Below are positions 23,102 through 50,207 of a DNA stretch of 64,000 nt, in pieces. Source of the DNA: Arthrobacter citreus (GTDB taxonomy: Bacteria > Bacillota > Bacilli > Bacillales > Bacillaceae_G); contig CP053688.1 of NCBI GenBank assembly GCA_013200995.1, forward strand, positions 1,240,001 through 1,304,000. The letters run 5' to 3'. A model generated the notes under the pieces. It searched no databases and had not been told where the DNA came from. It worked only from the letters and a program-made list of their open reading frames with translations. The stretch's first letter is position 1. Every line of letters begins with the position of its first letter. Position numbers and translations under genes: made by a program.

Positions 23102-23206
23102 CATAAAGTTGTTAACTTCGTGCATAAAGTAGCGGGATTTGTGCATAAATTGCTTGTTTTTATTCATATTTCCTCACTTTTTGTTCATAAGACGCTCGAC
23201 CATATT
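23102..23206 (+). repeat. 21-bp periodic array A1, CATAAA class
   Basis: CATA starts at 23102, 23123, 23144, 23165 and 23186, every step exactly 21 bases. The first unit is CATAAAGTTGTTAACTTCGT, almost the same as the first unit of the TTGATA arrays (ATAAAGTTGTGAACTTCGT), and is preceded by GAACA, also found before those arrays. The variable part of each unit (about 12 bases) differs. It is intergenic, in the same gap as array A2. Confidence 0.85.
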
Positions 23207-23266: not shown

Positions 23267-23372
23267 TTGATAAAGTTGTGAACTTCGTTGATATATTACT
23301 GAAAGTCGTTGATAAAGTATTAAAACAGGTTGATATATCACTAGTTCCCGTTGATATATTCATAATTTCACA
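23267..23372 (+). repeat. 21-bp periodic array A2, TTGATA class
   Basis: TTGATA starts at 23267, 23288, 23309, 23330 and 23351, exact 21-base steps, each unit ending CG, GG or AC. The leader unit TTGATAAAGTTGTGAACTTC and the upstream GAACACTAAGTGAAC are shared with arrays C and D. It lies 115 bases below the nitroreductase terminator. Weaker units with TTAATATTTC continue to about 23440. Confidence 0.9.
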
Positions 23373-31772: not shown

Positions 31773-31925
31773 ATTTACAGTTTCACTGAATTTAATTGCA
31801 GGTTGGAAAATTTTAATTGCAGTTTTGCTATTTTCATTTGAGGTTTTAGTCATTTTATTTGCACTTTTACCTTTTTTACTCGCACTGATTTATTTGCAGT
31901 TTTAGTCTTATTAGTTCCACGAATT
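31773..31925 (+). repeat. 21-bp periodic array B, TTGCA class
   Basis: Units begin ATT(T)GCAG or close variants. The G of the core falls at 31777 (A there), 31798, 31819, 31840, 31861, 31882, 31896 and 31917: all steps are 21 except one of 14. It has the same period as arrays A, C and D but an unrelated core, and lacks their leader unit. It lies within 20 bases of the thrB terminator. Confidence 0.75.
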
Positions 31926-44901: not shown

Positions 44902-45008
44902 TTGATAAAGTTGTGAACTTCGTTGATATATCGCTATTCTTCGTTGATAAAATACGAATTCTCGTTGATATATTACTATTCTTCGTTGATATAATAATAA
45001 TTGTTCGT
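44902..45008 (+). repeat. 21-bp periodic array C, TTGATA class
   Basis: TTGATA starts at 44902, 44923, 44944, 44965 and 44986, exact 21-base steps. Preceded by GAACAAAAAGTGAAC and starting with the leader unit TTGATAAAGTTGTGAACTTC shared with arrays A2 and D. One frame is open through the array (VDI or VDK every seven residues), but no start with a ribosome site was found. It ends ten bases before the terminator of the convergent DUF3892 gene. Confidence 0.9.
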
Positions 45009-48907: not shown

Positions 48908-49474
48908 TTAAGATCCCCTTTGATAAATCACTTGTACAACGCCAGAAGAAAATGTTTTTGTGTTAATCAAATTTAAATTGATTCTCTGTTTTAAATCTAT
49001 AAACAAAGGTTTACCTTCACCTAAAATGACAGGATGAATAGATAATCTAAATTCATCAACTAACCCCAAATTGATAAATGATGTAATAAGACTTGCACCA
49101 CCGTATAACCAGATATATTTACCCGTCTGCACTTTTAATTTATTTACTACTTCTGTTATATTTTCATTTATATAAATTGCATTATGCTCTTCATTAGCTT
49201 GCGTTCTGGAAAATACATATTTTTCTTTACTATGTACTAATTTCCACAATTCCTTATCGGCTACAGATTCATCTATTCCTGGCGTATAATTTCCCCATAA
49301 ATCGTAGCTTTTTCGACCATATAGAATAGTATCTATTTGATTAAGGAAATTAGTGAAATCCATTTCAGGATCCATAATACACCAATCAATTTCCCCGTTC
49401 TTTCCTTCAATAAAGCCATCTAAAGTAACTGCTAAATCTAAAATTACTTTTCTCTTCATATCGACTTTGGACAA
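48908..49474 (-). CDS. Dihydrofolate reductase-like (RibD C-terminal domain) protein
   Basis: 188 aa, YyaP/YwjB-type. It begins at a TTG seven bases after AGGAGG. Motifs: RKVILDLAVTLDGFIEGKNG (residues 8-27), DTILYGRKSYDLWGNYTPG, IWLYGGASLITSFINLGLVD (NADPH loop) and RLSIHPVILGEGKPLF. The reaction is unknown; the fold binds NADPH and a pteridine-like or uracil-like ligand. Confidence 0.87.
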   Translation of the reverse strand: MSKVDMKRKVILDLAVTLDGFIEGKNGEIDWCIMDPEMDFTNFLNQIDTILYGRKSYDLWGNYTPGIDESVADKELWKLVHSKEKYVFSRTQANEEHNAIYINENITEVVNKLKVQTGKYIWLYGGASLITSFINLGLVDEFRLSIHPVILGEGKPLFIDLKQRINLNLINTKTFSSGVVQVIYQRGS

Positions 49475-49607
49475 AACACTTCCTCCTTTTTTTAAAAATC
49501 ATCACTAATCGAATGTTTGTTCTTATTTTTATTATAACAAGCTCTCTTGGCGTTATCAAATACATATTGAGCGTAACTAGAACTATACGAACAGTATGTG
49601 AACTTTA

Positions 49608-50207
49608 TTGATAAAGTTGTGAACTTCGTTGATATAATGCCTATTTTCGTTGATAAACAGTCAAATCTCGTTGATAAATCGTCGATCATCGTAATATCTC
49701 CCTCAATTTCGTTGATTAGCAGCCTATTATCTTTGATATATCGTCGATCATCGTTATATTTCCCTCAATTTCGTTGATTAACAGTCCATTCTCCTTGATA
49801 TATCGTCGATCCTAGTTATATCTCCCTCAATTTCGTTGATTAACAGCCTATTATCTTTGATATATCGTCGATCATCGTAATATCTCCCTCAATTTCGTTG
49901 ATTAACAGTCCATTCTCCTTGATATATCGTCGATCCTAGTTATATTTCCCTCAATTTCGTTGACTAACAGCCTATTATCTTTGATATATCGTCGATCATC
50001 GTAATATTTCCCTCAATTTCGTTGATTAACAGTCCATTCTCGTTGATATATCGTCGATCCTCGTTATATCTCCCTCAATTTCGTTGATTAACAGTCCATT
50101 CTCCTTGATATATCGTCGATCATCGTAATATCTCCCTCAATTTCGTTGATTAACAGCCTATTATCTTTGATAAATCGTCGATCATCGTTATATATCCCCC
50201 AATTTTC
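49608..50207 (+). repeat. Large 21/62-bp periodic array D
   Basis: The array opens with 21-base units at 49608, 49629, 49650 and 49671, the first being the shared leader unit. From 49671 it becomes a 62-base unit made of three monomers (TTGATATATCGTCGATCATC plus G; TTATATTTCCCTCAATTTCG; TTGATTAACAGTCCATTCTC plus C). Units begin at 49671, 49733, 49795, 49857, 49919, 49981, 50043, 50105 and 50167 with no length drift; the last is partial. Two third-monomer variants (AGCCTATTATCT and AGTCCATTCTCC) mostly alternate, which points to a 124-bp duplication unit. Intergenic, 125 bases below the hutG terminator. Confidence 0.95.

What the first reader, a model, noticed from the sequence alone, without database searches (positions are those of the whole stretch)
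49608..50207. Intergenic array with a rigid 62-bp unit built from three 21/20/21-bp monomers
Eight full 62-base units plus a partial one follow each other without one base of length drift, although bases vary inside them. Each unit is three monomers of 21, 20 and 21 bases, close to two DNA helical turns each, so the same face of the helix would be presented again and again. The monomers contain TTGATATATCG, TTATATTTCCC and TTGATTAACAG. Alternating third-monomer variants suggest growth by 124-bp duplication. It is not a CRISPR (period too short, no distinct spacers), not a known terminator or riboswitch, and no reading frame stays open through it. A multivalent DNA-binding platform (nucleoid protein, segregation, replication pausing) or a structured RNA are possible roles.
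Basis: seen in the sequence. Interest (0 to 1): 0.88.

Follow-up and report, generated by a model that had tools for sequence, protein, structure and literature searches.

The report
Dispersed two-turn DNA repeat arrays
The repeat array next to hutG is a recently lengthened copy of a repeat element found at about 70 places in this Bacillus-like bacterium; a short motif recurs every 21 bases (two turns of the DNA helix), and motif and spacing are kept while the letters between drift, which suggests a row of docking sites for a protein not yet identified.

Summary
In detail: 49645-50205 is nine 62-bp units without an indel. But the 62-bp unit is not the basic feature. The array is the expanded, partly degenerate tail of one element of a dispersed Gottfriedia family: a conserved head (AAAnnCGAACA-N4-TGTGAACTTTATTGATAAAGTTGTGAACTTCGTTGATA) followed by 21-bp monomers with core GTTGATAWA. 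G000 has 73 head matches, reversed control 0. In 7 ortholog pairs of G000 and G007, cores are 98% identical, spacers 71%, upstream DNA 50%. Spacers diverge freely, yet 371 of 397 chained steps are exactly 21 bp. Related arrays in other families of the order mix 19/20/21-bp steps, keeping helical phase and breaking frame (loci picked by a 20-21-bp pattern). Elements are enriched between convergent genes (31 of 68 against 18 of 113 gaps) and rare in divergent gaps (4 against 30). Coding and RNA folding are not supported. Best reading: oriented, helically phased binding sites at gene ends for an unidentified DNA-binding protein; protein and role are not shown. The run of 62-bp units is a lineage-specific higher-order expansion, absent from the G007 ortholog.

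The parts
49588..49593 (+). 5' box CGAACA of the element head
   Evidence: information content 1.6-2.0 bits per position over 70 heads
49598..49634 (+). head: GTGAACTTTATTGATAAAGTTGTGAACTTCGTTGATA
   Evidence: its last 27 bases match 73 times with <=3 mismatches in G000, reversed control 0; 196 of 203 compared positions identical in 7 G000/G007 ortholog pairs
49628..49690 (+). three regular 21-bp monomers (GTTGATATA.., GTTGATAAA.., GTTGATAAA..) next to the head
   Evidence: sequence; same anatomy at other loci
49645..50205 (+). 62-bp higher-order array, 9 copies of a 21+20+21 trimer; overlaps the last regular monomers
   Evidence: TRF, unit comparison
48911..49474 (-). flanking gene, RibD C-terminal domain (dihydrofolate-reductase-like, by recall); its start faces the head
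   Evidence: Pfam PF01872 E 7.3e-24
   Evidence: Pfam PF00491 E 2.2e-76; sequence
44902..44990 (+). second element of the same family in the window
   Evidence: C1:1284902; L038
23267..23356 (+). third element of the same family in the window
   Evidence: C1:1263267; L056

Best explanation
The array is a DNA-level element: a head followed by direct repeats of a 9-base core (GTTGATAWA) set two helical turns apart, so that all cores face the same side of the helix and point the same way. I infer that an unidentified sequence-specific DNA-binding protein is nucleated at the head and binds cooperatively, head to tail, along the cores. Places lie mostly at gene 3' ends, above all between convergent genes, so a role as boundary or anchor at the ends of transcription units (against read-through or supercoiling) is the likeliest use. 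Shown: anatomy, dispersal, conservation of core and spacing, location bias. Inferred: the protein, the cooperativity, the role. The 62-bp run itself arose by local duplication of a degenerate trimer in the G000 lineage and need not add function.
For: 73 head matches, control 0, all on the main contig. Core against spacer in 7 ortholog pairs: 96/98 against 60/84 identical, Fisher p 1.6e-7; upstream 70/140, ungapped. Spacers of neighbouring monomers differ by 0.80 substitutions per site. Intergenic G000/G007 alignments show 6.9 substitutions per indel (483/70), or 6.1 (300/49) when repeats and paralogous hits are left out, so about 1.3-1.4 indels per step are expected if length were free; observed 371 of 397 steps at 21 bp, 23 at 20, 3 at 22 (chains accept only 20-22 bp). 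Without that limit 225 of 235 adjacent GTTGATA pairs up to 30 bp apart are 21 apart. Core conservation falls with distance from the head: fraction with >=6/7 matches 1.00, 0.99, 0.93, 0.83, then 0.36 over 70 heads (the first monomer is part of the search pattern). GTTGATAAAN{11,12}GTTGATAAA occurs in 15 of 199 genomes of the order (G000 and G007 included; 6 of the 15 have one hit only), reversed control 0 in all 199. In loci of other families 92 of 92 steps up to 30 bp are 19-21 bp (the loci were picked by a 20-21-bp pattern, so at least one step in each is by choice). A second, headless core in the genus (TGCAAWTAA) also prefers 21 bp: 55 of 69 steps up to 30 bp (most loci picked by a 21-bp pattern). 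Convergent 31 of 68 against 18 of 113 gaps >=200 bp, p 2.5e-5; divergent 4 of 68 against 30 of 113, p 3.7e-4.
Against: No protein was identified and no binding data exist. Monomer number varies between species, and at three further places no array of the family was seen in the other relatives, so elements are dispensable or young; at two of the three the DNA next to the anchor gene differs in most relatives, so these are not clean empty sites. The window array has degenerate cores in its middle monomer. Arrays of other genera mix 20 and 21 bp, so exact length is not needed everywhere. The TGCAAWTAA family has 6 of 69 steps at 18 bp, not in helical phase. A looser pattern had a few control hits (7 over 60 genomes against 240 real hits in G000 alone). 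Location bias alone would also fit harmless insertions that avoid promoters; it rests on naive ORFs, with ORFs overlapping the element set aside at 23 of 68 places and no such step in the baseline.
Confidence: 0.55

Rival explanations
1. Selfish or neutral minisatellite family: a small repeat seed spread long ago, arrays grow and shrink by slippage and recombination, and core similarity reflects common descent and conversion, not function.
For: Sporadic distribution (15 of 199 genomes); no array of the family in the other relatives at three places examined; recent 62-bp expansion in one lineage; some very regular arrays such as C1:2035249-2035464.
Against: Spacers differ between loci and between neighbours while core and step length stay; in orthologs the core is far more conserved than spacer and flank; bias towards convergent gaps.
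Confidence: 0.27
2. Arrays of DnaA-box-like sites that titrate the initiator DnaA.
For: TTTATCAAC is one base from the DnaA box TTATCCACA, and the sister core TTATGCACA fits TTATNCACA (both consensus forms recalled).
Against: The region around dnaA in this genome carries four exact TTATCCACA boxes, while 98% of monomers have T where the box needs G (this position was part of the search anchor with <=2 mismatches). No head lies within a 545-kb stretch that contains dnaA.
Confidence: 0.06
3. Transcribed structured RNA or RNA-binding array.
For: Slightly low folding energy: mean z -0.79, 12 of 68 below -2 in sense and 10 of 68 in antisense.
Against: The mean shift is small; no Rfam match overlaps an array in 14 loci; a fixed two-turn step has no obvious use in RNA. 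Covariation was not tested.
Confidence: 0.06
4. Coding heptad repeats (frame GTT GAT A.. = VD[IK]).
For: 21 bp = 7 codons; 25 of 52 all-21 arrays are open in the best frame.
Against: 38 stops in that frame, 27 of 52 arrays interrupted; 20-bp steps in G000 and mixed 19/20/21 steps elsewhere; no Pfam match for a 93-aa window ORF that runs through one array.
Confidence: 0.03

Closest known systems
Plasmid iterons
   Same: Short origin sequences of 17-22 bp, direct repeats, bound cooperatively; separation by half a helical turn abolishes cooperativity (passages of PMC4980987)
   Different: Here about 70 chromosomal places, none in the 545-kb stretch with dnaA; no match in the plasmid, phage or viral collections searched; no Rep protein known
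BldC operators (MerR-like, head-to-tail on direct repeats)
   Same: Oriented, variable number of direct repeats with one-turn spacing, bound as cooperative multimers (passages of PMC5859096)
   Different: BldC repeat is 9 bp and described at promoters; here 21 bp, mostly at gene ends; protein unknown
REP/BIME and BOX elements (recalled)
   Same: Dispersed, intergenic, gene-end bias, modular copy number
   Different: Those are palindromic or stem-loop forming; these are direct repeats without strong folding
bcr1 of the Bacillus cereus group (named in passages of PMC2267715)
   Same: Dispersed Bacillus repeat
   Different: Listed there among stem-loop-containing families; iterated core not mentioned in the passages seen

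Membership tests
Plasmid-type iterons | tandem direct repeats of 17-22 bp in one orientation | tested here: met
   21-bp monomers, 374 of 400 chained steps
Plasmid-type iterons | located in a replication origin | tested here: not met
   73 of 73 heads on the main contig, none in the 545-kb stretch containing dnaA; no plasmid match to head plus monomers
Plasmid-type iterons | bound by a Rep initiator | not testable with these tools
   needs binding experiment
CRISPR array | repeats separated by unique spacers of repeat-like length | tested here: not met
   9-base core, about 12 bases between cores
CRISPR array | cas genes nearby | not tested
   not searched
DnaA-box cluster | TTATCCACA-type boxes | tested here: not met
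   T instead of G in 98% of monomers, exact boxes present around dnaA
REP/BIME | palindromic, stem-loop forming unit | tested here: not met
   mean fold z -0.79/-0.50 over 68 elements
REP/BIME | intergenic, gene-end location | tested here: met
   31 convergent, 33 co-directional, 4 divergent of 68
Known RNA family | Rfam covariance match | tested here: not met
   no match overlapping an array in 14 loci, E up to 1
Coding tandem repeat | one open frame with length steps in multiples of 3 | tested here: not met
   27 of 52 arrays interrupted in the best frame; 20-bp steps; window array closed in six frames

The most novel reading that the evidence does not exclude
A conserved but uncharacterised DNA-binding protein of the order reads GTYGATAAA every two helical turns; different lineages independently build dispersed arrays of it, each with its own spacer style and head, to mark the ends of transcription units: a chromosomal iteron-like architecture system.
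Probability: 0.3. Interest if true: 0.82.

Novelty: new variant of a known kind. Interest (0 to 1): 0.6.

Why it matters
The better-known bacterial intergenic repeats are palindromes or mobile elements (recalled). Here step length and a short core are kept while everything between drifts, the signature of a phased row of protein sites on the chromosome. If a protein is found, it would give a handle on how bacteria organise gene ends or convergent transcription. The family also offers a record of how higher-order repeats, like those of eukaryotic satellites, arise in a bacterium.

Tried and rejected
Rejected: CRISPR layout, coding repeat, Rfam RNA, strong RNA fold, DnaA titration. Head plus first monomers had no match in the plasmid and phage collections (blastn, E 0.01), and the exact 27-base head none in viral contigs. 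The idea that one place switches between repeat types came from the hutG site, where 6 of 10 relatives (L062-L066, L068) hold TGCAAWTAA cores instead (L066 only two). It was not borne out at three further places: in the 530 bp shown per genome there was no array of a second family, only single core hits (12, 13 and 9 genomes shown; G003 was left out at the first place, where its match was weak). So it is one case. At the first place several relatives keep a TGTTCG box without an array (read by eye). A link with distance from the origin is weak (chi-square p 0.016; KS p 0.03; orientation 25 with the fork, 43 against). The palindrome in the head (AACTTTATTGATAAAGTT) varies in its left half without the right (listing, by eye) and was not pursued.

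Literature: eight searches of the held open-access library. I saw listings only, up to 20 per search, plus passages of three papers. None listed describes this family. The search by letters of the core found 80 papers with such strings, 15 listed, none on this subject by title.

Limits: gene context uses naive ORFs of 70 aa or more. Of 73 head matches 70 were in fetched DNA (three, at C1:4291562, 4677851 and 5109988, were not); two more lie inside one array and were dropped, leaving 68. The ortholog profile uses 7 of the 9 pairs aligned (both L226 rows dropped, since two G007 heads matched one G000 head); it is ungapped, which lowers upstream identity, and L227 has a 1-base shift. Of 9 G007 stretches (L222-L230), 8 matched a G000 element place; L225, with two heads, did not match any fetched G000 element. 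The script did not leave out the arrays when counting indels; one search repeats the count without them.

Full report
What is there. The interval holds nine 62-bp units in register with no indel. Each is a 21+20+21 trimer. Units two apart are more alike (0.938) than neighbours (0.885), so growth by 124-bp steps is likely.

A dispersed family. The 27-base head pattern (up to 3 mismatches) occurs 73 times in this 5.47-Mb genome, all on the main contig, with 0 matches to the reversed pattern. Two of the 73 lie inside one array, so there are about 71 elements. Of 60 genomes searched, this one included, 9 have a match, all of one genus. hutG relatives at 93-95% identity, several of them named Gottfriedia, place the genome in or next to that genus; G007 is probably Bacillus sp. 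AFS041924, judged by a contig of the same length, 39,129 bases. The head alignment starts at AAAnnCGAACA, with little conservation further upstream. After the head, cores are nearly intact in four monomers and then decay. In 72 arrays and 444 monomers (identical ones within an array counted once) the core is [AG]TTGATAWA, while seven spacer positions carry only 0.14-0.35 bits (core positions 0-6 were the search anchor, with up to two mismatches).

Selection on core and step. In 7 ortholog pairs between G000 and G007 the compared part of the head is 196/203 identical, the two cores 96/98, the spacer between them 60/84 and 20 bases further upstream 70/140, without gaps. Neighbouring monomers differ in their spacers by 0.80 substitutions per site. 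Intergenic G000/G007 alignments show 6.9 substitutions per indel with all aligned DNA and 6.1 with repeats left out, so about 1.3-1.4 length changes per step would be expected; with a ratio of 15 it would still be 0.6. Yet 371 of 397 steps are 21 bp. The chains accept only 20-22 bp; without that limit 225 of 235 adjacent pairs up to 30 bp apart are 21 apart. The estimate is rough: it rests on 49-70 indel events, some divergence may predate duplication, and many loci were fetched through patterns with a 20-22-bp step.

Helical phase, not reading frame. 27 of 52 arrays with 21-bp steps only have stops in their best frame. In loci from other families of the order, 92 of 92 steps up to 30 bp are 19 (4), 20 (31) or 21 (57) bp; since these loci were picked by a 20-21-bp pattern, part of this is by choice, but the mixing of lengths within arrays is not. 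Mixed 20/21 steps break the frame and keep the helical face. In the order survey the exact pattern occurs in 15 of 199 genomes from nine families, this genome and G007 included, with 0 control matches in all 199; 6 of the 15 have a single hit. Arrays were read in L279-L284, L294 and L351-L366. The genus also holds TGCAAWTAA arrays with the same preferred step, 55 of 69 (18 bp in 6 of 69), and arrays with core GTKCATAAA, an example of which shares the head. The looser patterns had a few control hits (3 over 60 genomes; 7; more, up to 4 in a genome, so that its hits outside G000, G007 and G026 say little).

Where they sit. Of 68 heads, 31 lie between convergent genes, 33 between co-directional and 4 between divergent genes. 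In 113 gaps of at least 200 bp from the 400-kb sample the numbers are 18, 65 and 30. Elements thus avoid promoter regions and prefer gene ends. At 23 of the 68 places an ORF overlapping the element was set aside; the baseline had no such step. Orientation within co-directional gaps is even (17 and 16). The longest stretch without a head, 545 kb, contains dnaA (confirmed with all 73 positions); simulated chance of such a gap at that point 0.007, of any gap so long 0.05.

History. Of 9 G007 stretches with heads, 8 match a G000 element place. At three places examined across the genus from one flanking gene, arrays of the family are in G000 only (two) or in G000 and G007 only (one); at the two former the DNA beyond the anchor gene differs in most relatives. 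The G007 ortholog of the window array has the head, regular monomers and two 41-bp steps, but not the run of 62-bp units. So the 62-bp run is young and built from a trimer whose middle core is already degraded; gain in G000 fits better than loss in G007, but loss was not excluded.

Mechanism. Shown are a conserved core, conserved spacing, one orientation, a head and gene-end location. The simplest cause is a protein that binds cores cooperatively on one face of DNA. Iteron-binding Rep proteins lose cooperativity when sites are moved by half a turn (PMC4980987, passages), and BldC binds direct repeats head to tail (PMC5859096, passages); both show that such binding exists, and neither is claimed as the protein here. 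Which protein, and what the complex does, remain open.

Novelty. Eight searches of the held open-access library listed no description of the family; only listings were seen, and most subscription literature is not held.

Noticed in passing
L062-L066, L068, downstream of hutG: The orthologous place carries TGCAA[AT]TAA repeats, often at 21-bp steps, instead of the window's family; L066 has only two such cores and also a tandem repeat of about 48 bp, read by eye.
   Followed up: partly
window 23120-23149: Pair of GTGCATAAA cores 21 bp apart, a sister core (GTKCATAAA), near the element at 23267; one example elsewhere shares the CGAACA head.
   Followed up: partly
L235, L237, L239, L242: TGCAAWTAA arrays are followed by an inverted repeat like ACCTATAC-GTATAGGT, perhaps an operator of the next gene.
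   Followed up: no
L283, L351-L355, L360-L362: In genomes of three other families arrays read AAAGTGGTTGATAAA or close; in f11 genomes another conserved stretch, (C)CGAATGG followed by TTTA, precedes them (by eye).
   Followed up: partly
G000 C1:3627863-4173165: 545 kb without a head, containing dnaA.
   Followed up: partly
L039 2471-2575: TPP riboswitch near one element.
   Followed up: no
window about 31780-31900, minus strand: A TGCAAWTAA array lies in the window too.
   Followed up: no
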